Below are positions 3,039 to 23,234 of a stretch of DNA of 25,637 bases, piece by piece. Within the stretch, counting starts at the first letter, position 1; each line of letters opens with the position of its first letter. Source of the DNA: a virus; IMG/VR virus record IMGVR_UViG_3300024231_000048, positions 1-25,637 of that record. The stretch is one strand, 5' to 3'. Below the pieces are notes generated by a model. It saw nothing but the letters and a program-made list of their open reading frames with translations. It was not told the DNA's origin and ran no database searches. A program made the position numbers and the translations under genes.

Positions 3039-3046
3039 TATTAATA
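3039..3046 (+). promoter_or_regulatory. Weak late-promoter-like octamer upstream of gp5
   Basis: TATTAATA directly after the hub gene stop differs at one base from the T4 late promoter TATAAATA. Start of transcription would fall near 3052, giving a leader of about 23 bases with GCGGAG at 3056-3061. It does not match the GATAAATA form seen before the later genes, so it may be chance in AT-rich spacer. Confidence 0.25.
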
Positions 3047-3074
3047 CTAACCCAAGCGGAGCATAATTAACAGT

Positions 3075-5318
3075 ATGGCAGAGAATCATATAAGAGGTAG
3101 AGGAAAAACAAAAAGTTACGGGTTTGGCCAAGGTAATCAACTACCTGGTGAAGCAGGACCTTTTGTTGGTATTGTTAAAAACAATATCGATCCTACACGT
3201 GCGGCAAGGTTACAAGTATACATTGAACAGTTTGGGGGTCCAGATGAACTAGATCAAACAAACTGGCGAACTGTAAATTATCTTCCACCGTTCTTTGGGT
3301 CAACAGAACACTCAGGAGCATCTGTGGGTTCGGGTAATTTTGTTGGCAATAAACACAGTTACGGAATGTGGTTTACACCACCCGACATTGGCACTAAAGT
3401 ATTATGCTTCTTTGTATCAGGTGATCCAGGAAACGGTTACTACGTAGGTTGTATTCCGGAAGACAGTCTCAATCACATGGTACCTGCTATTGGTTCAGCA
3501 AAAGAATATGAAGTAGGAGAAGGAGCAAAATCTCTTCTCACAGGTGCTACCCAAGTTCCTGTTACAGAAATTAATAATGAAGATCCGGCAATTAACGAAA
3601 ACCCGCTGTTCTTTAAACAGCCTAAGCCAGTACACGATGTATTAGCTGGGTCACTATTTAACCAAGGATTATTAAAAGACAACGTAAGAGGACCAATAAC
3701 ATCAACAGCACAACGTGAATCACCTAGTAATGTATTTGGAGTGTCAACACCAGGCAAGCCAATATACTCAGGTGTCAACGGAGCTGATCAGAGTAGTATC
3801 AGATCTAAACTTCAAAGCGGTGAGTTAAAACCAGAACAAGTAAAAGTTGTTGGCCGTAACGGTGGACATTCTATTGTATTAGATGACGGAGACCTCGAAG
3901 GTAACGATCAACTAGTAAGAATTAGAACAGCCAAAGGTCATCAGATTATAATGAGTGATGACGGAAACTGTTTTCATATTATTCATGCTAACGGACAGTC
4001 GTGGTTAGAGTTTGGCCAAGAAGGTACTGTAGATGTATTTGCTACAAATTCTGTAAACGTAAGGACACAGGGTACTATTAACCTGCATGCTGACAAGGAT
4101 ATTAATATGTATGCTGGTGGACACATTACTAGCTACTCGCAACTGTCAACAAGAATGGAGGCTCAAACAGAATTCTCGGCAACTGGTATTGCTGAAGCAA
4201 AATTATACAGTAAACAATTTGCTGGAGTACGCAGTGATAACACAGCGGCCATTGAAGGCGGAAAACTATCAAGCATGAACGGTGGTGACAGAATGGACAT
4301 CAAAGCAGGCATTATTAATCTTAACAACGGTGGGGGTGTTCCTGTTTCTCCTAATGTATTACTTAAGAAAAACAAAGTCAGCGACACAGTGTTAAGTCAA
4401 AACGGTTGGGAAGTAGAGTACAGTACATTAGAAACTATTGCTACTAGAGTACCAAGTCACGAGCCGTGGCCCTACCATAACCTAGGTGTTGAAAATTCAG
4501 TACAGTTAGGCAAGAAAGAAACAGCAGTGCTTGGATCGGCTGTAGCTACTAAAGTAGCAAACGTTGACAGCAAGTTGCCAACGAATGAAATCAATGCTAG
4601 TGACTTTGCTAAACAACAGTCAGCTACTAAAGCAATTGGCAGTCTCGACGAAGATCAACTGACTGGCTTGATAGCTCAACGTGCAAATGATGTTGGACAA
4701 GAATTTACAGATATATCTGCAGACAAAGGTGTAGGAGCATATGGGATATCACCAGACCAGCTTGAAACAGCAGGATTTTTAAAACCTGGAACAGTTTCTA
4801 GATATATTAAAGATCCTGCGTCATCAGTAACTGATGGATTTGGCACAGTTACAACACAGTTAGAATCAGTTCTTAAAAATCCAAATGTGTGGACTGGTAA
4901 AGGCGGAACAAATAATTTACTTGGATTCTTAAACAACAAGATAGTACAAACGCTAGCACAACAAGATGTTTTGTCAACTAGTCTAAGTACACTAAAAGCC
5001 AAAGGTATAGTAACAGGAAACGAAAGTCCAGTAGACCTAGGCGGTATCTTACAAGCAAGTTCAGCTTATGGTGCTGATGCAGTAGCAACTTGGGCCAATA
5101 GCCAAGGCGGAAACAGTTTAATTAATGCCGGTATTGAACAAACAGCACGTAACGGCAAGTATGCAATTAACTTTATAGATACTAAAATATCAAATCTTAG
5201 CAAGAGTTTTAGTAACCCTGGTGCGTTTGCAGGTACTACAGACAGAGAAACATTAGATAACAATGTTAGTAAGATTATTGCTGACCAACGTGCAATACCA
5301 CCCAAATATACTAGATAA
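3075..5318 (+). CDS. 5: Baseplate hub/needle protein gp5-like, without an internal lysozyme domain
   Basis: The N-terminus (residues about 25-140) matches the gp5 OB-fold: PFVGIVKNNIDPTRAARLQV, then WRTVNYLPPFFG, YGMWFTPPDIGTKVLCFF and GNGYYVGCIP. Residues about 255-355 are short strand repeats ending SVNVRTQGTINLHADKDI and NMYAGG, as expected for the trimeric beta-helical needle. In T4 gp5 (575 residues) a lysozyme domain lies between these parts; here only about 100 residues of linker are present, with no lysozyme-like motif. After the needle, residues about 430-747 form an extra region with GVGAYGISPDQLETAGFLKP (about 551-570) and WTGKGGTNNLLGFLNN (606-621), a pattern reminiscent of muramidase-like or cell-wall-associated virion domains. 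The start at 3075 is preceded by GCGGAG at a long spacing of 13 bases. The stop overlaps a promoter-like octamer for gp25. The hub/needle role is confident; enzymatic activity is not. Confidence 0.82.
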   Translation: MAENHIRGRGKTKSYGFGQGNQLPGEAGPFVGIVKNNIDPTRAARLQVYIEQFGGPDELDQTNWRTVNYLPPFFGSTEHSGASVGSGNFVGNKHSYGMWFTPPDIGTKVLCFFVSGDPGNGYYVGCIPEDSLNHMVPAIGSAKEYEVGEGAKSLLTGATQVPVTEINNEDPAINENPLFFKQPKPVHDVLAGSLFNQGLLKDNVRGPITSTAQRESPSNVFGVSTPGKPIYSGVNGADQSSIRSKLQSGELKPEQVKVVGRNGGHSIVLDDGDLEGNDQLVRIRTAKGHQIIMSDDGNCFHIIHANGQSWLEFGQEGTVDVFATNSVNVRTQGTINLHADKDINMYAGGHITSYSQLSTRMEAQTEFSATGIAEAKLYSKQFAGVRSDNTAAIEGGKLSSMNGGDRMDIKAGIINLNNGGGVPVSPNVLLKKNKVSDTVLSQNGWEVEYSTLETIATRVPSHEPWPYHNLGVENSVQLGKKETAVLGSAVATKVANVDSKLPTNEINASDFAKQQSATKAIGSLDEDQLTGLIAQRANDVGQEFTDISADKGVGAYGISPDQLETAGFLKPGTVSRYIKDPASSVTDGFGTVTTQLESVLKNPNVWTGKGGTNNLLGFLNNKIVQTLAQQDVLSTSLSTLKAKGIVTGNESPVDLGGILQASSAYGADAVATWANSQGGNSLINAGIEQTARNGKYAINFIDTKISNLSKSFSNPGAFAGTTDRETLDNNVSKIIADQRAIPPKYTR

Positions 5319-9142: not shown

Positions 9143-12100
9143 ATGGCAAGATTTACTAGAACATTAGATCTACTACCTGAGATATTTCAAACTGACGTTA
9201 ACAAAAAGTTTCTGAATGCCTCACTTGATCAAATTGTACAGCGTCCGCAACTGAAACGTGTTGAAGGCTTTATTGGTCGTAAAACCGGACTAGGTGTTAA
9301 AGGACTTGATAGTTATGTATTAGAACAAGATCAAGAACGTGCGGCCTATCAGTTAGAACCTGCAATTACATATAAGAAAAAAGATTCACAAGAGACTAAA
9401 GACTTTTTAACATACCCGGGTATAGTAGATGCATTACAAGTATCTGGTGCAAATGTTCAAAGACCAGATAGGTTATTTGACTCTGAATACTATTCATGGG
9501 ATCCTTTTGTAGATTTTGACAAGTTAGTTAACTTTAGCCAGTACTACTGGTTACCTGGTGGTCCAGATTCAGTTGACATAGGTGCAACTGAAATTTCAAC
9601 CAGTGACGAGTATGATGTTACAAGAAATGAATTTAATTATAGCCTAGACGGTGTTGAAGGAAATAATCCAACTATCACAGTTGTTAGAGGCGGTAACTAT
9701 AAATTTAATGTTCAACAAACAGGATTTCCTTTCTGGATACAAAGTAACCCAGGAGCAAATGGACTAGTTCCTGGTCAACCTAATCAATCAAGTAGAGAAA
9801 TATTAGGCGTTACTAACAACGGCGACGACAACGGCGTTGTACAATTCAATGTTCCGCAAAGTACAGATCAAAACTTCTTCCTGAACATGGATACTGCGGC
9901 CAAGGTTGATTTAGTTACAGAGTTAGACTTTGATGAAGTTAACAATCAACAAGTAAGACCATTCTTAGATTTGTATGACGGTATTGATCAAGTAACAGAT
10001 CTACGTAACAGAACAATTATCTTTACTAATAGAAACCCTGGTGATGGCGAAGATTCAGGTTGGAAGAGAGATGACAGATTTGATACATCACCATATGACG
10101 ATAATGATACACCGTTTGCTGAGTCAGAAGACATTACTACTAAAACAGATCGTTATTCAGTATACAGAATTGAATATGTATACGAAGAAGATGAATCATT
10201 GCCAGACTTTGATGCTAGTGGTGCTAATCCAATTATGGTACTCAACAAAGTTAAAGAAGTTCCAAACTTACAAAAAGTACATATACAGTATGGCACAACA
10301 TATAACAATAAGTATTTTTGGAAAACTAAAGAAGGCTTCTTTGAAGAACAACCACATCTTACAGCAATAAAAGATACTTTATACTATCAAGATCAAAATG
10401 ATGAAAATAGATTTGGCATCATTCGTGTAGTAGATGCTGTTAACCAATTGACTCTAAATGTTGGAGACGATATTGTAGGAGTTAAAACTTATACTTCTCC
10501 AACAGGTATTAAATTTAGTAACGGAATGAAAGTACAGTTTCGTGGTAAAACACTGCCTGAGACTTATCAGGATAAAGAATACTATGTTGAAGGTGTGGGT
10601 ACTGCAATTAAATTGTTAGCAGTTGCAGACTTTAAAACACCCGAGGCTTATACTGTTAGCGAAACACAACCGTTTGACGCTAAAGGGTTTGATGAAACAC
10701 CATTTGACTCAAGTCTAAATGCCCCAACAGAAAAAGATTATTTTACAATTAACAGAGCGTCACCTGATCAGAATCCGTGGACACGAAGTAACAGATGGTT
10801 CCATATTTCTGTTATCAAAGCATCAGCAGATTACAATAAGACTATTGCTAACTTAGATCAAACAGCTCGTGCTAAACGCCCTATTTTAGAATTTAACGAC
10901 GGTCTGAGGTTATTTAACTTTGGCACTGAAGGTAAACAAGCAATTGATATTATTGATCTAAGACAGAACGATGCACTTTCAAATGTAGCAGGACAGATTG
11001 GATATAGTATTGATAACTTTGGATTATACGATGGTGCAAGAGTTATTTTTGCCGCTGACGAAGATCCCGAAGTACGTAATAAAATTTATACAGTAAATTT
11101 AGTTGACCCGGTAGGTATAACTGTAGATCCTGAACAAACAAGCGAAAAAATTATTCAACTAACAAAAGCAGATGACGGAGATGTTGTCTTGGACCAAGTA
11201 GTGTACTTAATGAGTGGTGCAACTATACAAGGGCAGGCATACAGATATACAGGAACTGAATGGGTACAAACACAACAAAAAACAAAAGTTAATCAACATC
11301 CTGTATTTGACATATTTGATCAAGCAGGTAATTCAATTAGCGATAATACATATTATCCATCAACTAACTTTGCTGGTACTAAACTATTTTCTTTCAAAGA
11401 AGGAACAGGACCAATTGATAGTGAACTTGGTGTTAGACTGAGTTACTTGAACATCAACAATGTTGGAGACATTGTATTTGAAAATAACTTGTATAAAGAC
11501 ACTTATGTTTATACAGTTAATAATGTTTCAACAACTACAGACATTGCTACTGGCTTTGCTAGAAAGTACAGTGACCGAACAACTTTTAATTTAAAAACAG
11601 GTTGGGAAAAAGCTGTTGACACAACAAGACAAAGTCAAGTGTTTACATTTAGTGACCAATCTGAGTGTATCTGTGATATAAGACATAACGACGGTGATAA
11701 CACTGTTGTTGTATATGTTGACAACAAATATGTATTGCCAAGTAATTACACAGTTACAAGAACAGCAACCACAACAACAGTAACATTAGCTAAAGCAGAA
11801 GCAGTTGTACACATTCACGTAGTTAGTGATCAAGCAAGTGACATTGCTTATTATGAAATGCCAAGTAACTTGAGTGATAATTCAGTCAATGACGAGTTTG
11901 AAGAAGTTACACTAGGTACAACTAGAAATCATTTTGTTACACTAGCACAGAGCCACCCGGACTTATCCGGTGAGCTACTAGGTGAAAACAATCTACGTGA
12001 TCTAGGTAATGTTGTTGGTTATGGTAAACAGATTGTTGAACAAAGTAGTCCATTACAATTTACAGCAACATTTGCAAAAGATTCAAACATTAACTTCTTT

Positions 12101-15100
12101 GATTCACTGGAATATGCGTCAAATGAATACGAAAAAATTAAGAACAGATTAGTTGATGCATTAACAAAGAATGACTACCAGGGCCCAGCCGCAGAGAGAT
12201 TAGATCTTGCATTTGCAGATCTAAACAGAGGTAGAAACCCAGACATGCCGTTTTACTGGGCAGACACAATACCGTGCGGTGAAGTATTTGAAGAAACTAA
12301 AATAACAATAACAGCGATTGATGACAATACCTTTGACACACTGTCTACATATGATTACACAAAAGCAAACTACAAAGCTGTATTAGTTTACTTAAATGAT
12401 GTACAGTTAATAAAAGATATAGATTACACAGTAGCAACAGATGGTCCTAGGCTAATTATTGACGAAATTAAACAACCATTGGTTGTTGGTGATGTTGTTA
12501 AAATTAGAGAGTATGACTCTACAGTAGGAAGTTTTGTTCCGCCAACACCAACTAAGCTAGGATTATTTGATAAATTTATTCCTAAGATATTTACAGATAA
12601 TTCATATTCTACATCACAGACAATACTACAAGGTCATGATGGATCCAGAATGATTACGTTTGGTGATAACCGTGACGATGTATTGTTAGAGTTTGAACGT
12701 AGAATGTACAACAATATTAAACTACCATCGTCTAATGTAATACCGCTAAGATGGTATGATGTTATTCCGGGTAAATTTAGAAAAACAGATTATGCAGAGT
12801 CCGAAGTAGTTGAGCTACTTGGCGAAAGCTTCTTGTCATGGGTAAGTTGGAACAAGCTAGATTACAAACTGCAAGAATACGATAAAGATAATAAGAAAAC
12901 ATGGAACTATAGTTCAGCAACAGATAGAATTGATGAGGAACTTCTAAGAGGTAACTGGAGAGGTAATCTACTTAAATTCTATGACACAGATATACCGCAC
13001 TTACATCCGTGGGAAATGTTTGGATTTTCAGAAGAACCAAGTTGGTGGCAACGTCAATATGGTCCAGCACCATATACAGGTGATAACTTAGTGTTATGGG
13101 ACGATTTAGCCAATGGTGTAGTTAATGATCCAGCAGGAAAGTATACGTTAACAAACTTTAAGCGTACTGGACTACAAACTGTTATTCCTACAGGCGACGA
13201 AGGACAACTTGAAGCAACATTTGATGTACTGGTCGACAACTATGACCCAATGAGTACACAAAAGGCTTGGCAAGTAGGAGACGGTGGCCCTGTTGAGACA
13301 GCTTGGAGAAGATCAAGTGCTTGGCCATTTGCTGTTATGAAACTTCTAGCAAAAACTAAGCCAGCACAGTTCTTTAGTTTAATGGCTGACAGAGATAGAT
13401 ACAAGTATTCATCAGCACTAGGACAGTATGTATTTGATTCAAGATATAGATTAACATCAAACAATCTTGACATATACGGCAGTGGCACTATTAAACACAG
13501 TTACATTAACTGGTGTGTTGACTTTGCACGTAGACAAGGTATTGCAGACAAGCAAGCAATAGAAGACACCTTAAGAAATACACAAGTGCAACTAGTCTAT
13601 AGAACAGGCGGCTTTACAGATAAACAGTTCTTAAAAGTGTTTACAGAAAAATCATCACCTAACACACTTAACGCAAACTTACTATTACCTGATGAAAGTT
13701 ACGAAGTTGTTTTATATAATAACGAACCATTTGATGAAGTTACATATAGTTCGGTTATTGTACAGAAAGTAGCAGGCGGTTATGCTGTATACGGTAACTC
13801 AAAAGAACAGTTATACTTTAAGATATTCCAGTCAGTTCCAAACGGAAACTACAAAAATATTGTAGTAGGCGATAGCAATGTTAGGACAAGTCTTGATTTC
13901 TCAAGCAAAGAAGTATTAGTGCCATACGGTTACACATTTACAGATAAAGGTTTATTGGTAGACTTCTTAGTAAGCTACGGTGAATGGTTACAAAGCAAAG
14001 GCTTTATATTTGAAGACAGAGAGAATGGCTATTTACTAAATTGGGGACAAATGGTTACTGAGTTCTTATATTGGAATCAACAAGGATGGCAAGAAGGTGC
14101 GATCATTAATCTTAATCCAGCGGCAAGTGAACTTAAAATTTCAAGACCAGGTGCAGTGGCAACTCCTATACTAGGTAAACGTGCAGATGAATTTGTACTA
14201 AATCAAAATTTACGTCCTATACTAAAAGAAAACCTTGTATGGAATAGAATCGATAATGACTTAACTATTAAAACAATAGATGAAAACTCAATTGGTTTTG
14301 TTAAGATTAAATTTACAAGCTATGAACACGCACTAGTATTTGACAACACTAGTATCTTTAATGACTTAATGTACGATCCAGCAACAGGTGCTAGACAACA
14401 ACGTTTGAGACTAATTGGCACAATGTCAGATAATTGGGACGGGACTGTTAATGCGCCAGGCTTTATTATGAATCAGCCTAATGTTGAAGACTGGAAAGAA
14501 AACAGCCAATATGCAAAAGGTGACATTGTTAAATATAAAAACAAATATTATGCAAGCCTTAAACGTTTAACACCAACAGCAGTGTTTAACTTTGCTAACT
14601 GGGCAGAAACAGAATACGAATCAGTCAAGACAGGCCTAATACCTAACCTAGCATTAAAAGCACAACAGAGTGAACAGTTCTACGATCTAAGTGAAGCAAA
14701 CTTAGAGTCAGACGCAGATCTATTAGGATTTGGTCTTATTGGATTCCGACCAAGAAACTACATGCAAGGACTCACACTTGATGACGTAAGCCAAACAAAT
14801 GTTTATAAAAACTTTATTGGTAATAAAGGTAGTACGCAGTCATTAGACTTATTTAAATCAGCTAAACTTGACAAAGAGCTTACTGACTATAATATATTTG
14901 AAAACTGGGCAGTACGTTCAGGAGTTTATGGTGCTAGCTCAAACAGAAGCTATGTTGAAACACAATTAGACAGTGACAAGTTAACTGGTAATCCTGCAAC
15001 AATAAAAATTACAGATTCAGTTAACGGAACCACAGTTAATCAAACTATCAGAACTGCTGAAATTTACAAATCAAACTACAAAGTCACAACAGAGGACATA

Positions 15101-18100
15101 CTACCAACAGTTGATTATCAGAACGTTGAGAACTCATTGCCGTCGGCAGGTTTTGTAAATGTTGATGATGTTGATATTAAAATATTCCAGCTAAATGATT
15201 TAACTGAGATTATAGATAATATAACCAAGATTGCTGAAGGTACTAAGATTTGGGTAGCTAAAGATAATAACTACTCATGGAACGTTTATAGATCAACGCT
15301 GGTACATAGCGAACCTATTAGAGTGCTCGATAACCTGGACGATACATCAACAGTAACATTCAATGCACATCATAGTCTTAGTAAAAATGATATTGTTGTG
15401 TTTAGATTCTTTGACGGGTTAACAGGAGCATTTAGAGTTAATGCAGTTCCTGATTTAGATAAAATTATTATTGACTTATCATTACCAGATGAGGTTACAA
15501 CTTTAACTGATCTAGGTGTAGCATTTGTACTACAATCAAGTAAAGTTACACAAGGCAGTGACATAGCTAACTTGCCGTATGTTCACGATATAGACACAGG
15601 CGAAAAGATTTGGGTTGATGGAACAAGATGGAAAGTGTTAGAAAAACATAACCCGTTTAACGACTCGGCGAGTACTTGGAGTAAAACACTTAAGGCACCT
15701 CAAGCAAATGCAGAGTTTGGTAAAGTTGTATCACAAACTCCAGATGGCCTAACAAGTTTAATTGGTGCACCAAGATGGGAATCAGGAAGAGGCAGTGTTT
15801 ACGTGTTTGGCCAAATTGGCACAGGTGATATCCAAGAAGGCACACAGTTACATCTAGGTAAACTGTCTAGCACAATTGATAAAGAAATTGCAGAGTACGG
15901 TAAGAGTATTGACTCTGCAGACAATGGATGGAACATTGTTGGAGCTCCGGGATCAAAAGATGACGAAGGTATATCAGTAGTCATTGACAAAACACCAAGT
16001 GGTGTTATTAGAGAGGCACAGATATTAACAATTCCGGGCAATGAAGCCGGTGATAGTTCAACTAGCAGATTTGGCGAAGCAGTTTCAATTAGTCCTAATT
16101 CAAATTGGATTTATGTAGGTGCTCCGGGTAACGAAAAAGTTTATACATATCAACGTGTTGACTATGAGCAACAAACATATGATTTCTTTGGAGATGGGTC
16201 AACAACTATATTTGATATTAGTGATTACATCACAGTAGCTGATGAAACACAGGTTGCAATTAATATTAATAATATATCAAAGGTAGCAGTAGATGATTAT
16301 TCGTTAACTAGTGGTATATTAACATTTGAAGACCCTCCAAGAGATGGGGCTAAGATTGAGATAACACGAGTTTATACATATCAAGCAGACGGTGACGGCT
16401 CAACAGTAGCGTATGATATCAGCTCAATCTATCATGCAACTTCTATAGAAAAGTTTAGAGTATTAATAGATAGTGAATTACTGAGACCTAACTATGATTA
16501 TACATTTGACAGTGGTTCACAAACAATTACATTTACACTAACAAATAAAGTAGGTGCAAGTATTGCACCACCCAATGATTCACTTATACAAGTTTTTGCT
16601 GAATCACATTTCACATATGTTAGTGCTATTAGTAATCCAGGCGAGCCAGGTAATAACTTTGGCGGAAGTATTGCTACTACAAGAGACGGTAGACAAATAG
16701 TAATTGGAGCAGACACAGGAGAAGGATCTGACTCAAGCACAAACGTAGGTAGAGTGTTTGTATTTGATAGAGACGCAGAACGTTTCCAAGCTAAAACAAG
16801 TACGTCGTTGACATTTACAACTACAAAATCTATTGTTGGTAAACCAACAGTGTTGGTTAATGAGCAAGTACAAGTTAACGATGACGACTACTTGTACGCA
16901 GGGTCATACACAGTTTCAGGCAAGACTATAACAATAGATGATGATGTAGTTGATCTAGGTGATATTATTGAAGTTGAAACTAACAACTATGTACTAGCTG
17001 GCGAGTTACATCAAGAGTTACCAATGCAGAATTCACAGTTTGGATTTGCTGTAAAAGTATGTCCAACTAACTGTTCAATGTATGTTGGTGCACCGCAAGA
17101 TTCAAAAAATAAAGAAAATGCAGGTTCTGTAACACGCTTTGTTAACAGATCAAGACTGTACGGTTCAACAATGGGTAGTATAGCAAACCCAACAATTACT
17201 ATTGGTGATGCACTGAGAATTAACAACTATTATGTTGTTGCTACAGGCACAACAGCTACTAGCTACGCACTTGATATTACAAACGCTAATATTCCAAATG
17301 TTAAAGCAAGCGTGGTTGATAATAAAATTAAAATTGAACTAATAAATGTTAATGCGGCACCGACAGCAAATAAATTGTTTATCTATCCAGGTATAGGAGT
17401 AATACACGAGGATCTCGGAATTGATATATTCCCAAGAATGCAAACAATCCATAATCCGTATCCATTAGTTAATGCAAGACTTGGGCACAGTTTAGATATC
17501 TCAAGCGATGCACAATCGATTGTCATTGGAGCTCCGCATGGTGCTACAAACTTAGAAGTTACACTAGACACTAGCACAACAACTATTGACGCAAGTGCAA
17601 CTAAGATAAAAGATGTACAAACACAAAGTGGTGCTGTTTATACATATGACTATTTAGAAAGTGATGCAGATACTTACACAAACCCAGGTAGGTTTGTATT
17701 TGGACAGCAAATTAACGATAACCTAGTTCATCCACTAAGTGAGTTTGGTACTAGTGTTGATTACTGTAATGCTAAATTATTAATTGGTTCGCCTAAACAT
17801 GAAACATCAGATATAGCATACGGTAGAATTGTAAGATTTAACAACGACACATATACACCGGTGTGGCAAGTAGATGAACAAGAAACAGATGTAGTAAATA
17901 CAGCACTTTTAAATTCGGTGTTTATATACGACAGGACAGACGAAAAGCTACTAACACATTTAGATTATATTGACCCACTACAAGGTAAAATCTTAGGTGC
18001 GGCTAAACAAAATATTGACTTACTGATACCAGATGATCCTGCACAATATAATAACGGAACATCAAATAACTTTGGAATGACTTGGGGCAATGAGAAAATA

Positions 18101-21100
18101 GGCACAATATGGTGGGACGTTTCTACTGCTAAGTTTATTAACTACAATCAGTCAACAGCAGACTATCGTGCTAAACGCATAGGTAACTTATTCCCAGGTT
18201 CAACTATTGACATTTACCAATGGATATCTAGTGATCTTCCACCAACAAGCTACGAGGGCGAAGGGACAGTTTACTCAACAGAAAGTTATTCAACACTCAG
18301 CGATGTAAAAGAAGGCGGAGAAGTAATTACAAAATACTACTTCTGGGTAAAAGGATTAACATCAGTTGATAAAGATGCTAACAAAACATTAAGTCCTGTT
18401 ACTATTGCACAATATATTGAAACTCCAAAGTCAAGTGGAATACCATACATGGCCGCTGTTGATAAAAATATATTTGCTCTGTTTAATTGTCAAGATAATA
18501 TTAAAGACCAAGACTCGGTGTTGCACGTTGAGTTTGACAAAATTGAAACAAACAACAATGTACACATTGAGTATGAACTTATTAGAGAAAATGATTCTAC
18601 ACAGTTCTTAAGTGATACCTTATATCGTAAATTCTTAGACTCATTCTGCGGTACTGATACTGCAGGCAACATTGTTCCTGATCCTAGCCTATCAATTACA
18701 GATAGACGAGGTGTTGACTTTAGACCTAGACAAACAATGTTTGTCAACAGATTTAAAGCATTAGAAAATTATCTAACAGCAACAAATAGAATACTAAAAA
18801 CATTGCCAATAACAGAAATAAGAAGTTATCCGCTATTGAATAGCCAGGAAGTAATGCCAGGAAAACCAAGTAACACTTGGGATATTCAAGTAGAAGATAC
18901 AGCTGAGTTAGGATTTCAGACAACAGGCATTGATGCAATTGGTACACGTTATCTTGTCAAGGTAGACGAAAATAACGATAACTTGTGGACTATATATACT
19001 CTACAAAGTAATAGAACATTATTGTTAACACGTGTGCAGAATTATAAAACAACACGTTACTGGGATGTCGCTGATTGGTATGCAACAGGATACAACGTAC
19101 TAGATAAACCAACAAAAGAAGTTAATCTATACGCAGACCTAGCAACACTGACAACTGCAACTGTTGGAAACATTGTTAAAGTACGTTCAAATGCACAAGG
19201 CAAGTTTGAAATTTATCAACTAGATACAACAGGATGGACTAGGGTTGGTTTAGAAAAAGGTACTATACAATTTAAAAGCAGTATATATGATTATACTATT
19301 GACCGTAACGGCTTTGACAATGAAGTATTTGATGCACAATACTTTGATCAAGAAGCTGTTCTTGAACTAAGACAACTAGTTAAATCTATTAACGAAGAAT
19401 TATTTGTCAATGACTTAGCTAAACATAGAATTGACCTAATTACTCTAATGTTTAACTATGTACTCAGCGAACAAAAAACAACAGACTGGTTAGTAAAAAC
19501 TAGTTTAATTGATGTACAACATAACCTACGTGAACTTAAACAGTTTGATATATTAAGACGTGATAACCAAGACTTTATTCAGCAGTACATTGAAGAAGTT
19601 AAACCATACAGAACACAGATTAAAGAGTTTAATTTAGTCTATAAAGGTGAAGATACGTTCTCAGGTGATGCAACTGACTTTGATTTACCTGCACAATTTA
19701 ACACAGATCTTAACAAATATATTTCACCAAGACACGTATTAGATCAAGAAAATATTACAGGTGAAGGTGTTTACCAGTTAGACAATGCAATTTGGTCAAC
19801 AGGTGATTATTCAAGTTGGAGACAGAACTTTGCACTATCAATTCAATCAGTAACAGTGATCGATGGTGGCACAGGGTACACAGAAGCACCTGAAGTAATT
19901 GTTACAGGCGAAGCTGATGCTCCGGCAGAAATGACAGCACGTGTTTCATCAGCAGGTAAGCTAGTTAGTATTACAGTTAATTATGAAGGACAAGGATATA
20001 CGTCAACACCAGTTATTACGCTCAAAGGCGGTAACGGTACAGGGGCTACAGTAGTTGCAGTTACAGCACCAGGTGATGTAAGATCATATAAAACAACAAT
20101 TAAGTTTGACAGATATGACCATAGTACCAGTGTACTTGATTGGACAGCTGAAACTTCGTATGAACAAGATCAACTATTGCGTTACAATAACAAAGTTTAT
20201 AAAGCAGAACTAGCAGATGGCAGTACGTTAAGTAAAGCAACATTTGATCCATTGGATTACACATTAGTTGATGTTACAGATTTATCAGGTGTAGATCGTA
20301 CAATGGGACTATATCAGCCAGGCGCCAATTACCCAGGCTTAGATTTGTCGTTACTAGTATATGGCACAGAGTATCCAGGAGTTAATATAACTGGACCAAA
20401 CTTCAATCAAAATACTGGTTTAGACGTAGGTAACTTTGATGTTAATCCATATGACAACATTGACTTTGATGAAAATGGTAGACCATCGTATTCTGAGACA
20501 ATACTTGATTCTAAATATGAAGGTGGCGACTACAGTGGAACAACAGCAACATCACTATTATCAACTGATGTTGATGTAGACGGTGGAGCATACATTGACA
20601 GTTACAATAGTCATGCACCACAAGAACTTGTTCCGGGTGCAATATTTGACACACTTAATATTTCCGTTACTACACGACCAGGTGAAGACTATACAGATAC
20701 AGGATGGACTGGTCAGAGTCAGGCAACATATGTAGAATTTAATGGTACTGATAGAGTAATTAGTTTTGATGGATTAATTGATGTACCATTTGCTGTACTT
20801 GCGTTTGATGTTGCTTCAGGTAAACAATTAGTATTTGAATATGGTGACACTCCAGTAAATGATGTTGACTACACTATAGATTGGAACGCTAAAACAATTA
20901 CACTAACTGATGGTAGATTTACGTCAGGTGATACTATTGGTGTTACAGCATACGGTGTTGGAGGTGGAAACCAATTGCTTGTTGAGGATTATAAAGCAGG
21001 TGATTACATAACAACTGATGGTCATGCAGATATTATTTTACCAGTTGATCACGAACAGATTAAAAACTTAGAAGTTCTAGTCAATGGTGAAAAGATTACT

Positions 21101-22570
21101 AACTGGACATTAGAAACACATGAGACTTATCATACTAAGTTAGGTATCGGTAATAGAGACATAGACGGCAATGGTGCTCCAAATATTGATCTAGTAGCAA
21201 ATGGTCAGACAAGAGCATTACAGTCAACAGATCATATTCATTTAGTAGTAGTAGGCTATGGTAGTTTAGATACAGTGAGCACACTGTTACTTGAATACAA
21301 CGACGATCATTGCAATGTTTCATACCCTAAAGTTGATAGTACGTATATAACAGATGCGTCTGATTATGTATATGATATATCGCAAGACATACACGACCAT
21401 GGTATTAATCCTGAGCTTGCTATTGTAACATTAAACGGTGAAAGATTAAGACCACCTGAGGGATTAGAGTTTACTAGTGATGGAACTACAGTAGACTTTG
21501 CGTTAGACTTACAGAGTAACCTAGGACAAGGGACAATTTCAGATAACGATATAATTGTATATGTTGACGAACGAGAAATTCAACTATATGCTGACTTTAT
21601 ATTATCCCCGTTTGACGGGTCAAGTGATAGAATTATTACTTTACAAACAGCACCAGAAGATGGTAAGAAAATTAAAATATTTGTAAAAACTGGTGCACAG
21701 TATACCATACACAGACACAGTCACGAAATAGGTGGCGGAGATTCCAGTATACATATAGAGTCAACAGGACTAACACTAAAGGTTGGTGATCACTTAGCAG
21801 TAGTAGGATTTGGATATACTGATGAGCTTGACGGAATGACTAGAGTTTATCAAGGACCAACACAGACTGGCTTCACAACAAGAACAACGTTTGACTCAGT
21901 TGGGTTCGACACAGAAGCAGGATTTGATAGACAAGTAGGTGTTACAGTTGATCAATCAGTTTACTTCTTAGAAAGAGCAATTACATTGCCAGAAAATGTG
22001 GTTGTACATGTTAACGGTCGACGCAAATTCTATGGTGTAGATTGGAAACTACTTGACGGCGACAATAGATATATTGAGTTTTACTCAGTAGACGTACAAG
22101 CAACGGATATTGTCACAGTGACATTAGAAAGCGAAAATATTGTACCAGACGAAATGAAATTCCAAATCTTTAAAGATATGAATGATACTGCAGGTATTTG
22201 GAGATGTGGCGAGCAATCAACGTCAGCACTAATAAAACAAGTTGACTTAACCGACGATGTAATTTATGTTAAGGACGCAAGTAAACTACCTATACCTGAT
22301 TTAGATAATAGTCAATTTGGATTTATTATGATTGGCGGAGAACGTATTAGTTACAGAACTAGAGATCTAGTAACAAACACTGTAAGTAATCTACGTAGAG
22401 GTATACATGGCACAGCAGTTACTACGCATGCGTTAGGCACTGATGTTATTAACATGTCAAGCAATGAATACGTAGATTGGAATTACAACCAATCATTATA
22501 CGCCAACAATGGACTGCCGTTAACACAGACAGATACAGTGCCGGCCAAGTTCTTAAGAAGAGCCAATTAA
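9143..22570 (+). CDS. Giant multidomain baseplate/tail structural protein with FG-GAP propeller
   Basis: One uninterrupted frame of 4475 codons directly after gp6, in the position of T4 gp7. The N-terminus (LLPEIFQTDVNKKFLNASLD, then LVNFSQYYWLPGGPDSV at about 128-144) and HPWEMFGFSEEPSWWQRQYG (about 1287-1306) are of the kind found in large virion proteins of marine T4-like phages. Recognisable parts in order: beta modules near 850 and 1077; chitin-binding-like segment about 1783-1827; W-V/W-K-V motifs near 2033 and 2153; seven FG-GAP-type blades about 2190-2910; VLSEQKTTDWLVKTSLIDVQ and YIEEVKPYRTQIKEFNL about 3445-3500; Gly-Tyr repeats about 3570-3645; second chitin-binding-like segment about 3666-3710; beta modules 3880-4330; and a closing IGGERISYR/LRRGIHGTA segment. 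No signal peptide or membrane span is visible. AGGA lies 6 bases before the ATG, overlapping the gp6 stop. A peripheral wedge role (gp7-like, perhaps replacing further T4 genes) is an inference; structural function is strongly supported by context. Confidence 0.8.
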   Translation: MARFTRTLDLLPEIFQTDVNKKFLNASLDQIVQRPQLKRVEGFIGRKTGLGVKGLDSYVLEQDQERAAYQLEPAITYKKKDSQETKDFLTYPGIVDALQVSGANVQRPDRLFDSEYYSWDPFVDFDKLVNFSQYYWLPGGPDSVDIGATEISTSDEYDVTRNEFNYSLDGVEGNNPTITVVRGGNYKFNVQQTGFPFWIQSNPGANGLVPGQPNQSSREILGVTNNGDDNGVVQFNVPQSTDQNFFLNMDTAAKVDLVTELDFDEVNNQQVRPFLDLYDGIDQVTDLRNRTIIFTNRNPGDGEDSGWKRDDRFDTSPYDDNDTPFAESEDITTKTDRYSVYRIEYVYEEDESLPDFDASGANPIMVLNKVKEVPNLQKVHIQYGTTYNNKYFWKTKEGFFEEQPHLTAIKDTLYYQDQNDENRFGIIRVVDAVNQLTLNVGDDIVGVKTYTSPTGIKFSNGMKVQFRGKTLPETYQDKEYYVEGVGTAIKLLAVADFKTPEAYTVSETQPFDAKGFDETPFDSSLNAPTEKDYFTINRASPDQNPWTRSNRWFHISVIKASADYNKTIANLDQTARAKRPILEFNDGLRLFNFGTEGKQAIDIIDLRQNDALSNVAGQIGYSIDNFGLYDGARVIFAADEDPEVRNKIYTVNLVDPVGITVDPEQTSEKIIQLTKADDGDVVLDQVVYLMSGATIQGQAYRYTGTEWVQTQQKTKVNQHPVFDIFDQAGNSISDNTYYPSTNFAGTKLFSFKEGTGPIDSELGVRLSYLNINNVGDIVFENNLYKDTYVYTVNNVSTTTDIATGFARKYSDRTTFNLKTGWEKAVDTTRQSQVFTFSDQSECICDIRHNDGDNTVVVYVDNKYVLPSNYTVTRTATTTTVTLAKAEAVVHIHVVSDQASDIAYYEMPSNLSDNSVNDEFEEVTLGTTRNHFVTLAQSHPDLSGELLGENNLRDLGNVVGYGKQIVEQSSPLQFTATFAKDSNINFFDSLEYASNEYEKIKNRLVDALTKNDYQGPAAERLDLAFADLNRGRNPDMPFYWADTIPCGEVFEETKITITAIDDNTFDTLSTYDYTKANYKAVLVYLNDVQLIKDIDYTVATDGPRLIIDEIKQPLVVGDVVKIREYDSTVGSFVPPTPTKLGLFDKFIPKIFTDNSYSTSQTILQGHDGSRMITFGDNRDDVLLEFERRMYNNIKLPSSNVIPLRWYDVIPGKFRKTDYAESEVVELLGESFLSWVSWNKLDYKLQEYDKDNKKTWNYSSATDRIDEELLRGNWRGNLLKFYDTDIPHLHPWEMFGFSEEPSWWQRQYGPAPYTGDNLVLWDDLANGVVNDPAGKYTLTNFKRTGLQTVIPTGDEGQLEATFDVLVDNYDPMSTQKAWQVGDGGPVETAWRRSSAWPFAVMKLLAKTKPAQFFSLMADRDRYKYSSALGQYVFDSRYRLTSNNLDIYGSGTIKHSYINWCVDFARRQGIADKQAIEDTLRNTQVQLVYRTGGFTDKQFLKVFTEKSSPNTLNANLLLPDESYEVVLYNNEPFDEVTYSSVIVQKVAGGYAVYGNSKEQLYFKIFQSVPNGNYKNIVVGDSNVRTSLDFSSKEVLVPYGYTFTDKGLLVDFLVSYGEWLQSKGFIFEDRENGYLLNWGQMVTEFLYWNQQGWQEGAIINLNPAASELKISRPGAVATPILGKRADEFVLNQNLRPILKENLVWNRIDNDLTIKTIDENSIGFVKIKFTSYEHALVFDNTSIFNDLMYDPATGARQQRLRLIGTMSDNWDGTVNAPGFIMNQPNVEDWKENSQYAKGDIVKYKNKYYASLKRLTPTAVFNFANWAETEYESVKTGLIPNLALKAQQSEQFYDLSEANLESDADLLGFGLIGFRPRNYMQGLTLDDVSQTNVYKNFIGNKGSTQSLDLFKSAKLDKELTDYNIFENWAVRSGVYGASSNRSYVETQLDSDKLTGNPATIKITDSVNGTTVNQTIRTAEIYKSNYKVTTEDILPTVDYQNVENSLPSAGFVNVDDVDIKIFQLNDLTEIIDNITKIAEGTKIWVAKDNNYSWNVYRSTLVHSEPIRVLDNLDDTSTVTFNAHHSLSKNDIVVFRFFDGLTGAFRVNAVPDLDKIIIDLSLPDEVTTLTDLGVAFVLQSSKVTQGSDIANLPYVHDIDTGEKIWVDGTRWKVLEKHNPFNDSASTWSKTLKAPQANAEFGKVVSQTPDGLTSLIGAPRWESGRGSVYVFGQIGTGDIQEGTQLHLGKLSSTIDKEIAEYGKSIDSADNGWNIVGAPGSKDDEGISVVIDKTPSGVIREAQILTIPGNEAGDSSTSRFGEAVSISPNSNWIYVGAPGNEKVYTYQRVDYEQQTYDFFGDGSTTIFDISDYITVADETQVAININNISKVAVDDYSLTSGILTFEDPPRDGAKIEITRVYTYQADGDGSTVAYDISSIYHATSIEKFRVLIDSELLRPNYDYTFDSGSQTITFTLTNKVGASIAPPNDSLIQVFAESHFTYVSAISNPGEPGNNFGGSIATTRDGRQIVIGADTGEGSDSSTNVGRVFVFDRDAERFQAKTSTSLTFTTTKSIVGKPTVLVNEQVQVNDDDYLYAGSYTVSGKTITIDDDVVDLGDIIEVETNNYVLAGELHQELPMQNSQFGFAVKVCPTNCSMYVGAPQDSKNKENAGSVTRFVNRSRLYGSTMGSIANPTITIGDALRINNYYVVATGTTATSYALDITNANIPNVKASVVDNKIKIELINVNAAPTANKLFIYPGIGVIHEDLGIDIFPRMQTIHNPYPLVNARLGHSLDISSDAQSIVIGAPHGATNLEVTLDTSTTTIDASATKIKDVQTQSGAVYTYDYLESDADTYTNPGRFVFGQQINDNLVHPLSEFGTSVDYCNAKLLIGSPKHETSDIAYGRIVRFNNDTYTPVWQVDEQETDVVNTALLNSVFIYDRTDEKLLTHLDYIDPLQGKILGAAKQNIDLLIPDDPAQYNNGTSNNFGMTWGNEKIGTIWWDVSTAKFINYNQSTADYRAKRIGNLFPGSTIDIYQWISSDLPPTSYEGEGTVYSTESYSTLSDVKEGGEVITKYYFWVKGLTSVDKDANKTLSPVTIAQYIETPKSSGIPYMAAVDKNIFALFNCQDNIKDQDSVLHVEFDKIETNNNVHIEYELIRENDSTQFLSDTLYRKFLDSFCGTDTAGNIVPDPSLSITDRRGVDFRPRQTMFVNRFKALENYLTATNRILKTLPITEIRSYPLLNSQEVMPGKPSNTWDIQVEDTAELGFQTTGIDAIGTRYLVKVDENNDNLWTIYTLQSNRTLLLTRVQNYKTTRYWDVADWYATGYNVLDKPTKEVNLYADLATLTTATVGNIVKVRSNAQGKFEIYQLDTTGWTRVGLEKGTIQFKSSIYDYTIDRNGFDNEVFDAQYFDQEAVLELRQLVKSINEELFVNDLAKHRIDLITLMFNYVLSEQKTTDWLVKTSLIDVQHNLRELKQFDILRRDNQDFIQQYIEEVKPYRTQIKEFNLVYKGEDTFSGDATDFDLPAQFNTDLNKYISPRHVLDQENITGEGVYQLDNAIWSTGDYSSWRQNFALSIQSVTVIDGGTGYTEAPEVIVTGEADAPAEMTARVSSAGKLVSITVNYEGQGYTSTPVITLKGGNGTGATVVAVTAPGDVRSYKTTIKFDRYDHSTSVLDWTAETSYEQDQLLRYNNKVYKAELADGSTLSKATFDPLDYTLVDVTDLSGVDRTMGLYQPGANYPGLDLSLLVYGTEYPGVNITGPNFNQNTGLDVGNFDVNPYDNIDFDENGRPSYSETILDSKYEGGDYSGTTATSLLSTDVDVDGGAYIDSYNSHAPQELVPGAIFDTLNISVTTRPGEDYTDTGWTGQSQATYVEFNGTDRVISFDGLIDVPFAVLAFDVASGKQLVFEYGDTPVNDVDYTIDWNAKTITLTDGRFTSGDTIGVTAYGVGGGNQLLVEDYKAGDYITTDGHADIILPVDHEQIKNLEVLVNGEKITNWTLETHETYHTKLGIGNRDIDGNGAPNIDLVANGQTRALQSTDHIHLVVVGYGSLDTVSTLLLEYNDDHCNVSYPKVDSTYITDASDYVYDISQDIHDHGINPELAIVTLNGERLRPPEGLEFTSDGTTVDFALDLQSNLGQGTISDNDIIVYVDEREIQLYADFILSPFDGSSDRIITLQTAPEDGKKIKIFVKTGAQYTIHRHSHEIGGGDSSIHIESTGLTLKVGDHLAVVGFGYTDELDGMTRVYQGPTQTGFTTRTTFDSVGFDTEAGFDRQVGVTVDQSVYFLERAITLPENVVVHVNGRRKFYGVDWKLLDGDNRYIEFYSVDVQATDIVTVTLESENIVPDEMKFQIFKDMNDTAGIWRCGEQSTSALIKQVDLTDDVIYVKDASKLPIPDLDNSQFGFIMIGGERISYRTRDLVTNTVSNLRRGIHGTAVTTHALGTDVINMSSNEYVDWNYNQSLYANNGLPLTQTDTVPAKFLRRAN
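14490..14626 (+). other. Chitin-binding-like (CBM5/12-type) segment 1 in the giant protein
   Basis: Residues about 1783-1828 read DWKENSQYAKGDIVKYKNKY, then a gap and NFANWAET. The order W-x(5)-Y-x-x-G-D-x-V-x-Y-x-x-x-x-Y ... W is that of CBM5/12 folds, which are common in phage fibres and chitinases as small carbohydrate-binding modules. Binding itself is an inference. Confidence 0.45.
15709..17870 (+). repeat. Seven FG-GAP-type blades (integrin-alpha-like beta-propeller) inside the giant protein
   Basis: Seven repeats follow the pattern F/Y/L-G-x(4,6)-S/T-x(3,8)-I/V-G-A/S-x ... G-x-V-x-x-F/Y. They begin near residues 2192 (FGKVVSQTPDG, LIGAPRW, GSVYVFG), 2250 (YGKSIDSADNG, IVGAPGS), 2309 (FGEAVSISPNS, YVGAPGN), 2506 (FGGSIATTRDG, VIGADTG, GRVFVFD), 2632 (FGFAVKVCPTN, YVGAPQD), 2780 (LGHSLDISSDA, VIGAPHG, GAVYTYD) and 2868 (FGTSVDYCNAK, LIGSPKH, GRIVRFN). 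Seven is the number needed to close a propeller of the integrin-alpha type. Most blades lack the full D-x-D-x-D-G calcium loop of integrins and look closer to the bacterial FG-GAP variant. Extra segments interrupt the series after blades 3, 4 and 5. Confidence 0.78.
19850..20080 (+). repeat. Tandem Gly-Tyr repeat in the giant protein
   Basis: Two copies of about 35 residues: VIDGGTGYTEAPEVIVTG followed by VNYEGQGYTSTPVITLKGGN. Each has G-x-G-Y-T-x-x-P-x-[IV], then an Ala/Thr-rich strand and a G-K-L-V or A-T-V-V turn. Such G-x-G-Y-T-x-x-P repeats occur in several phage tail proteins and are predicted to form beta-strands. Confidence 0.7.
20139..20278 (+). other. Chitin-binding-like (CBM5/12-type) segment 2 in the giant protein
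   Basis: Residues about 3666-3712 contain DWTAETSYEQDQLLRYNNKV followed by Y-K-A and a short loop ending FDPLDYTLV. The spacing W-x(5)-Y-x(5)-L/V-x-Y-x-x-K-V-Y matches the first copy. It lies directly after the Gly-Tyr repeats and before a Tyr/Gly/Pro-rich stretch (LYQPGANYPGLD). Confidence 0.45.
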
Positions 22571-22586: not shown

Positions 22587-23234
22587 ATGGACGATAAAAA
22601 AGAAAAAGAAACTATGGAAAATAAAAAACCTGATGAAACCTCAGGTGTTTTAATTGAAGGTCATATTAAGATCTTTGATCCAAACACTAAAGAAGTAATA
22701 GTGGACAAGCGTAATGCTATTCATTACGAAAACTTCTCAAACAGTTTAGCACAGGCGATGGCTAATAAAAATATAGGACACATTTACTCAATGAGTTTCG
22801 GCAATGGTGGTTCGAGTGTAGACTCCACTGGAGTTGTTACATATCTACCTCCAAACTCAGTTGGTAAAAATGCTGACTTATATAACCAAACATATACAAA
22901 AGTTGTTGATGATACATCAGCAAGTAATACAGATCCGAGTCGTAACAAGTTAACAGTTTTGCATACGTCCGGTAAAGTTTATACAGACATACTAGTTTCA
23001 TGCTTGCTAGATTATGGCGAGCCAGCAGGACAAGAAGCATTTGATAATTCAACAAGTTTAGACGGAGAGTATGTATTTGACGAGTTGGGTTTGAAATCAT
23101 GGCAAGGTAGTGCTACTGATTTAGATTTGGTAACACACGTGATATTCCACCCTGTGCAAAAATCATTGAACAGACAGATACAAATTGATTACACAGTGAG
23201 AATACAAACATTAACTAACCTTTCTAGTACATAA
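22587..23234 (+). CDS. Uncharacterised virion structural protein, 215 residues
   Basis: I do not recognise a named T4 counterpart. The first 20 residues are highly charged (KKEKETMENKK) and probably disordered. A globular part follows: GVLIEGHIKIFDPNTKEVIV, then ENFSNSLAQAMANKNIGHIY, SMSFGNGGSSVD and YLPPN, and near the end QKSLNRQIQIDYTVRIQT. The F-G-N-G-G and beta-rich ending resemble small fibre or baseplate-associated proteins of marine T4-like phages. It lies 16 bases after the giant gene and before two fibre-like genes, which suggests that it connects or decorates them. The annotated start has AGGA 10 bases upstream, but Met10 at 22614 is a credible alternative because of the promoter position. 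Structural role is likely; precise role unknown. Confidence 0.72.
   Translation: MDDKKEKETMENKKPDETSGVLIEGHIKIFDPNTKEVIVDKRNAIHYENFSNSLAQAMANKNIGHIYSMSFGNGGSSVDSTGVVTYLPPNSVGKNADLYNQTYTKVVDDTSASNTDPSRNKLTVLHTSGKVYTDILVSCLLDYGEPAGQEAFDNSTSLDGEYVFDELGLKSWQGSATDLDLVTHVIFHPVQKSLNRQIQIDYTVRIQTLTNLSST

What the first reader, a model, noticed from the sequence alone, without database searches (positions are those of the whole stretch)
15709..17870. Seven-bladed integrin-alpha-like FG-GAP propeller inside a phage baseplate-region protein
Seven repeats with F-G ... G-A-P ... G-x-V-Y-x-F character can be read between residues about 2190 and 2910 of the giant protein. Seven is exactly the count of the integrin-alpha and similar propellers, in which the domain binds ligands or partners. 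In a phage this would be a natural receptor-binding or host-glycan-binding platform, carried not on a fibre gene but within the large wedge-adjacent protein. Blade count and boundaries come from reading the sequence; ligand binding is an inference.
Basis: partly seen in the sequence, partly recalled or inferred. Interest (0 to 1): 0.78.

Follow-up and report, generated by a model that had tools for sequence, protein, structure and literature searches.

The report
Integrin-like propeller in giant phage protein
A giant tail-baseplate protein of a large bacterial virus carries a seven-bladed propeller domain folded like the ligand-binding head of animal integrins; it was gained once in a big, uncultivated group of such viruses and may help them grip their hosts, though its ligand is unknown.

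Summary
Residues 2179-2900 (window 15677-17842) of the 4475-residue protein encoded at 9143-22570 hold seven FG-GAP blades. A blade profile trained without the window's close relatives finds exactly seven (17.7-44.8 bits; best of 500 shuffles 9.7). AlphaFold2 gives a confident model (pLDDT 86, pTM 0.87); its first 32 PDB matches are integrin-alpha heads. It differs from integrins: no DxDxDG calcium sites, and three large modules sit in the strand 3-4 loops of blades 3, 4 and 5.

The protein follows gp25 and gp6 in the baseplate gene block and is homologous to giant virion proteins of Rak2/PA5oct/Atu_ph07-type jumbo phages. Those cultured relatives lack the propeller at that site. Among 148 homologues, 114 carry it, always between the same two anchors. 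The tree needs two changes: most simply one gain and one clean loss. So it is an old, vertically inherited module on a conserved scaffold.

Receptor or glycan binding remains inference (about 0.5). Docking or structural roles are the main rivals. Precedents exist: phage propellers in phi11 and phiKZ gp131, and stand-alone FG-GAP genes in Atu_ph07 and Phosso. Rating: new variant of a known kind.

The parts
9143..22570 (+). Giant virion protein, 4475 aa, directly after gp25-like and gp6-like baseplate wedge genes
   Evidence: homologous to giant virion proteins of jumbo phages
15590..15676 (+). Upstream scaffold strand pair (IWVDGTRWKVLEK) into which the propeller is inserted
   Evidence: conserved in the propeller-less homologues L086/L095/Paride
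15677..15685 (+). N-terminal strand, inferred closing (fourth) strand of blade 7
   Evidence: strand in AF2 model; repeat register; pairing not measured
15716..15850 (+). Blade 1 (FGKVV..LIGAP..GSVYVF)
15896..16027 (+). Blade 2 (YGKSI..IVGAP..GISVVI)
16070..16159 (+). Blade 3, strands 1-3 (FGEAV..YVGAP..KVYTYQ)
16160..16606 (+). Insert 1 in the strand 3-4 loop of blade 3: two tandem beta modules (GDGST-type)
   Evidence: the same region of L019 matches a tail-fibre PHROG, E 4e-5; weak PDB match 'Phage particle protein' 9s0y, E 0.09
16607..16633 (+). Blade 3, strand 4
16652..16789 (+). Blade 4, strands 1-3 (FGGSI..VIGAD..GRVFVF)
   Evidence: best PF14312 single match
16790..16963 (+). Insert 2 in the strand 3-4 loop of blade 4 (beta module)
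16964..17008 (+). Blade 4, strand 4
17036..17143 (+). Blade 5, strands 1-3 (FGFAV..YVGAP..GSVTRF), with a nearly invariant CxxxC in the 1-2 loop
17144..17434 (+). Insert 3 in the strand 3-4 loop of blade 5 (alpha/beta module)
17435..17449 (+). Blade 5, strand 4
17480..17713 (+). Blade 6 (LGHSL..VIGAP..GAVYTY), with a 32-residue excursion in its 2-3 loop (17534-17629)
17744..17842 (+). Blade 7, strands 1-3 (FGTSV..LIGSP..GRIVRF)
17900..18322 (+). Downstream scaffold anchor (LLNSVFIYD..DPLQGK..WWDxS..LFPGS), conserved in the homologues
14492..14560 (+). CBM_5_12-like carbohydrate-binding module match, best stretch residues 1784-1804
   Evidence: PF02839, 29.7 bits against cut-off 26.2 over two stretches
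20141..20212 (+). Likely second CBM_5_12-like stretch (WTAETSYEQDQLLRYNNKVYKAEL), placed by eye
   Evidence: one search reports two stretches; position read from the sequence

Best explanation
Residues 2179-2900 are a calcium-site-less, seven-bladed FG-GAP propeller of integrin-alpha type, inserted in a loop of a giant baseplate-associated scaffold protein of T4-like jumbo myoviruses. The scaffold is continuous without it: in the propeller-less sub-clade a loop of about 40 residues takes its place. Both termini leave from the blade-7 strand 3-4 side, the same face that carries the three inserted modules (blades 3, 4, 5). The opposite FG-GAP face, equivalent to the integrin ligand face, should therefore point away from the scaffold. 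Most likely it is a peripheral adhesion platform of the baseplate that binds a host surface glycan or protein and helps adsorption, alongside separate tail fibres. Shown: repeats, predicted fold, site, inheritance. Inferred: ring closure, face orientation, baseplate position, adhesive function.
For: Seven blades, out-of-sample and shuffle-controlled. AF2 pLDDT 86.2, pTM 0.87. Foldseek's first 32 PDB matches are integrin alpha heads. An A4 profile against PDB sequences finds integrin alpha-M at E about 1e-4. Gene order gp5-gp25-gp6-giant. Homologues at 27-28% identity in cultured jumbo phages; one carries the record note 'identified with LC-MS/MS analysis' (ENKO_265c), and CBB_236, beside the CBB gp6 gene, was found in virions (PMC5259590; homology to the giant assumed from position). 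114 of 148 unique homologues carry the propeller; all 986 blade hits lie between the same anchors. The tree needs two changes. Insert 1 has a tail-fibre match in a close relative. CBM_5_12 matches elsewhere in the protein. Phage propeller precedents phi11 and phiKZ gp131 (PMC4901313).
Against: No ligand, host or virion data exist for this clade. One sub-clade (L086, L095, L099, L100) lost the propeller and keeps the same downstream genes where they can be read, so it is not essential everywhere. The scaffold region 2910-3560 (pLDDT 75, pTM 0.50) matches nothing in PDB, so its place in the baseplate rests on gene order. Long, stable vertical inheritance is also what a structural part would show.
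Confidence: 0.5

Rival explanations
1. The propeller is a structural or docking hub: its faces and inserted modules hold tail fibres or neighbouring wedge subunits, and host contact is made by other proteins.
For: Propellers are common protein-binding scaffolds (PMC8023676). Inserts 1-3 are present in all 57 aligned relatives (minimum lengths 140, 56 and 97). Vertical inheritance.
Against: The two immediate downstream genes are kept at similar identity in propeller-bearing and propeller-less relatives, so they are not obligate clients. The scaffold exists without the propeller in 34 of 148 homologues.
Confidence: 0.35
2. The propeller binds environmental or extracellular polymers (particles, mucus, exopolysaccharide) and keeps virions near hosts, rather than binding a specific receptor.
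For: CBM_5_12 (chitin-binding type) matches in the same protein.
Against: No direct evidence; the CBM-like matches are short.
Confidence: 0.1
3. The propeller is an enzyme, such as a glycan-degrading propeller.
For: Some propeller families are glycosidases or lyases (PMC8023676).
Against: Sequence and fold matches are to integrin alpha, not to glycosidase propellers. No enzyme family match among the Pfam hits.
Confidence: 0.03
4. The repeats are chance or separate beta sandwiches.
For: Individual Pfam matches are weak.
Against: Leave-out blade profile and shuffles; confident single-fold prediction and integrin matches.
Confidence: 0.02

Closest known systems
Integrin alpha-subunit beta-propeller
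   Same: Seven four-stranded blades, FG-GAP/cage motif, N-terminal closing strand (inferred), best PDB fold matches
   Different: 1-2 loops are 2-5 residues with no DxDxDG calcium site in the window; three large modules in the 3-4 loops of blades 3-5; embedded in a phage virion scaffold
Pfam FG-GAP_2 (PF14312) repeat proteins
   Same: Passes the family cut-off over the whole protein
   Different: Blades are split by inserted modules, and two blades are not detected singly
Seven-bladed propeller of phiKZ gp131 (4GBF) and five-bladed propeller of Staphylococcus phage phi11 Gp45
   Same: Beta-propellers of phage baseplates linked to host recognition (PMC4901313)
   Different: Carried by separate proteins; no FG-GAP relation was found; 4GBF is not among the 50 best fold matches
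Stand-alone FG-GAP genes of relatives: Atu_ph07 gp320 'hemagglutinin' and Phosso giant ORFs
   Same: FG-GAP_2 repeats in phages of the same scaffold family
   Different: Separate genes, not an insert in the wedge-adjacent giant protein
Giant virion proteins of Rak2/PBECO4, PA5oct/Paride, Atu_ph07, Salicola SCTP-2
   Same: Homologous scaffold and gene order
   Different: No FG-GAP match at the site; other or no insert there

Membership tests
Integrin-alpha-type (FG-GAP) beta-propeller | Seven tandem blades with FG ... GAP/cage motif | tested here: met
   (seven hits); invariant or near-invariant motif residues G44, G59, P61, G68, F161, G162, A178, P179, F357, G358, G485, P502 and others in 57 relatives
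Integrin-alpha-type (FG-GAP) beta-propeller | Fold most similar to integrin alpha heads | tested here: met
Integrin-alpha-type (FG-GAP) beta-propeller | Calcium-binding DxDxDG in the strand 1-2 loop of several blades (definition in PMC3192720 and PMC8023676) | tested here: not met
   1-2 loops are 5,5,5,5,5,5 and 2 residues, and no DxDxDG or DxNxDG was found in the window propeller; sporadic single motifs in 21 of 114 relatives
Integrin-alpha-type (FG-GAP) beta-propeller | Closed ring by N-terminal strand pairing with blade 7 | tested here: inconclusive
   strand present and in register; coordinates not available
Integrin alpha subunit (true integrin) | Thigh/calf domains, transmembrane segment, beta partner | tested here: not met
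   the propeller is flanked by the phage scaffold on both sides
FG-GAP_2 (PF14312) | Score above curated cut-off | tested here: met
   37.4 bits against 23
Phage receptor-binding protein | Binds host receptor or determines host range | not testable with these tools
   no experiment; function inferred
T4 gp7 (wedge initiator) | Gene directly after gp6 in the wedge cluster | tested here: met
   gp25-gp6-giant order; T4 order from own knowledge
T4 gp7 (wedge initiator) | Sequence or fold similarity to gp7 | tested here: inconclusive
   profiles A7-A9 and the A10 model find nothing in PDB; the model is only moderate

The most novel reading that the evidence does not exclude
A large uncultivated clade of jumbo phages acquired an integrin-alpha-like propeller once and mounted it on the wedge-adjacent giant protein as a permanent host-adhesion platform, loaded with further modules on one face: a receptor-binding device that is part of the baseplate frame rather than a fibre.
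Probability: 0.4. Interest if true: 0.72.

Novelty: new variant of a known kind. Interest (0 to 1): 0.52.

Why it matters
No paper describing an FG-GAP propeller in a phage baseplate-region scaffold was found in the searched library. If the adhesive role holds, a whole clade carries its host-binding platform in the baseplate frame, inherited for a long time instead of swapped like fibre tips. The clean loss in one sub-clade gives a natural comparison of related phages with and without it.

Tried and rejected
Chance or separate sandwiches: rejected by the leave-out profile, shuffles and fold prediction. Recent acquisition by the window phage: rejected; 114 of 148 homologues have it and the tree needs only two changes. 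Downstream fibre-like genes as obligate partners: not supported; they are also present in the propeller-less sub-clade. LamG-like domain at the same site in Salicola SCTP-2, which I read by eye: no Pfam match, not claimed. Scaffold as a T4 gp7 relative by sequence or fold: nothing found.

Full report
What is there. The window is a 25.6 kb IMG/VR virus record. Its genes run: 962-aa virion protein, gp5-like hub/lysozyme, gp25-like wedge protein, gp6-like wedge protein, the 4475-aa giant (9143-22570), then a 215-aa protein, a 450-aa protein with tail-fibre matches and an unfinished ORF. PHROG 'head and packaging' for the giant conflicts with this baseplate gene order; I follow gene order.

Repeats. 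Pfam FG-GAP_2 passes its cut-off on the whole protein, and five of the seven blades match it singly in register. To test the count without circularity, I built a blade profile from relatives, leaving out the window and its relatives above 60% identity. It finds exactly seven blades at residues 2178-2904, with scores 17.7-44.8 bits. The best hit in 500 shuffles of the protein is 9.7 bits, and a profile of blade 4 alone hits all seven positions.

Fold. AlphaFold2 on residues 2150-2951 with 57 aligned sequences gives pLDDT 86.2 and pTM 0.87. Foldseek against PDB lists integrin alpha heads (alpha-V, alpha-5, alpha-4, alpha-IIb and others) for the first 32 matches, E from 1.7e-10, TM-score up to 0.64 by target length. 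A sequence profile of the family also picks out integrin alpha-M (E about 1e-4).

How it differs from integrins. The strand 1-2 loops are five residues or fewer, with no DxDxDG; that motif defines the calcium sites of integrin propellers (PMC3192720; PMC8023676). Three modules of 149, 58 and 97 residues sit in the strand 3-4 loops of blades 3, 4 and 5, and all 57 aligned sequences have them. The first is made of two GDGST-type beta modules; in a 79%-identical relative it matches a tail-fibre PHROG (E 4e-5). The scaffold joins at the corresponding position of blade 7. By propeller topology the inserts and the attachment share one face, and the FG-GAP face points away. This orientation is inference.

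The site. Aligned with giants of cultured jumbo phages, the propeller lies between a GYVNxDDV block and a DPLQGK...WWDxS...LFPGS block. In Paride and in the uncultivated relatives L086 and L095 the scaffold runs through with a short loop. Among 148 unique homologues with the downstream anchor, 114 have five or more blades (79 have seven, 25 six, 8 five, 2 eight) and 34 have none. All 986 blade hits lie between the anchors. These counts come from the best hits of three searches, so they describe a sample, not the whole family. The profile was trained on part of the same family; the 34 blank homologues serve as the negative control.

History. On a tree of 140 homologues made from a scaffold segment outside the insert, presence and absence need two changes: the cultured reference phages on the tree all fall outside the bearing clade, and four relatives (L086, L095, L099, L100) inside it lack the propeller. 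The simplest reading is one gain and one loss; the root is a midpoint and some branches are long. tblastn finds no match to the propeller region in the phage collection. In four large contigs of the bearing clade (222-344 kb) the only FG-GAP_2 protein detected is the giant itself.

Function. Homologues of the giant are virion proteins: the record of ENKO_265c notes detection by LC-MS/MS, and CBB_236, beside the gp6 gene of phage CBB, was found in virions with 21 peptides (PMC5259590; its homology is assumed from position). Phage propellers in host recognition have precedents: phi11 Gp45 (five blades) and phiKZ gp131 (seven blades, at the baseplate periphery), where binding was proposed but for phiKZ not confirmed (PMC4901313). 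Two CBM_5_12-like stretches elsewhere in the giant fit a surface-binding role. A peripheral adhesion platform is therefore my best reading (about 0.5), with docking or structural roles next (0.35). The loss sub-clade keeps the same two downstream genes where the contigs reach that far, so they are not obligate partners.

Limits. The scaffold itself matches nothing in PDB by sequence, and a moderate model of residues 2910-3560 has no fold match, so its place in the baseplate rests on gene order and homology. No host, ligand or virion is known for the bearing clade.

Noticed in passing
L239 (Sinorhizobium phage Phosso PV764938.1, 48338-68978, - strand): Two adjacent giant ORFs (3162 and 3692 aa, 'hypothetical') hold nearly 40 FG-GAP_2 repeats, enough for several propellers in tandem; two further FG-GAP ORFs at 92124-94532.
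   Followed up: partly
L238 (Atu_ph07 NC_042013.1, 243018-244199): FG-GAP protein annotated 'hemagglutinin' (gp320) lies beside two tail sheath genes, within a gene range that the genome paper (PMC6102473) lists as a virion protein cluster.
   Followed up: partly
window 14492-14560 and about 20141-20212: Two CBM_5_12 (chitin-binding type) matches in the giant protein outside the propeller.
   Followed up: no
window 17060-17074 (blade 5, 1-2 loop, CPTNC): A CxxxC pair that is nearly invariant across 57 aligned sequences; metal or disulfide unknown.
   Followed up: no
window 19865-20032: GxGYxxxP repeat pair in the giant protein, a motif that fills the propeller site in Phosso and Atu_ph07.
   Followed up: no
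L006 (Salicola SCTP-2), residues about 2110-2370 of the giant: A different insert of roughly 250-300 residues at the same site that reads like a LamG domain by eye, but no Pfam match.
   Followed up: partly
window 22587-23234: The 215-aa downstream protein is 74-76% identical across relatives whose giant scaffold is only about 50% identical.
   Followed up: no
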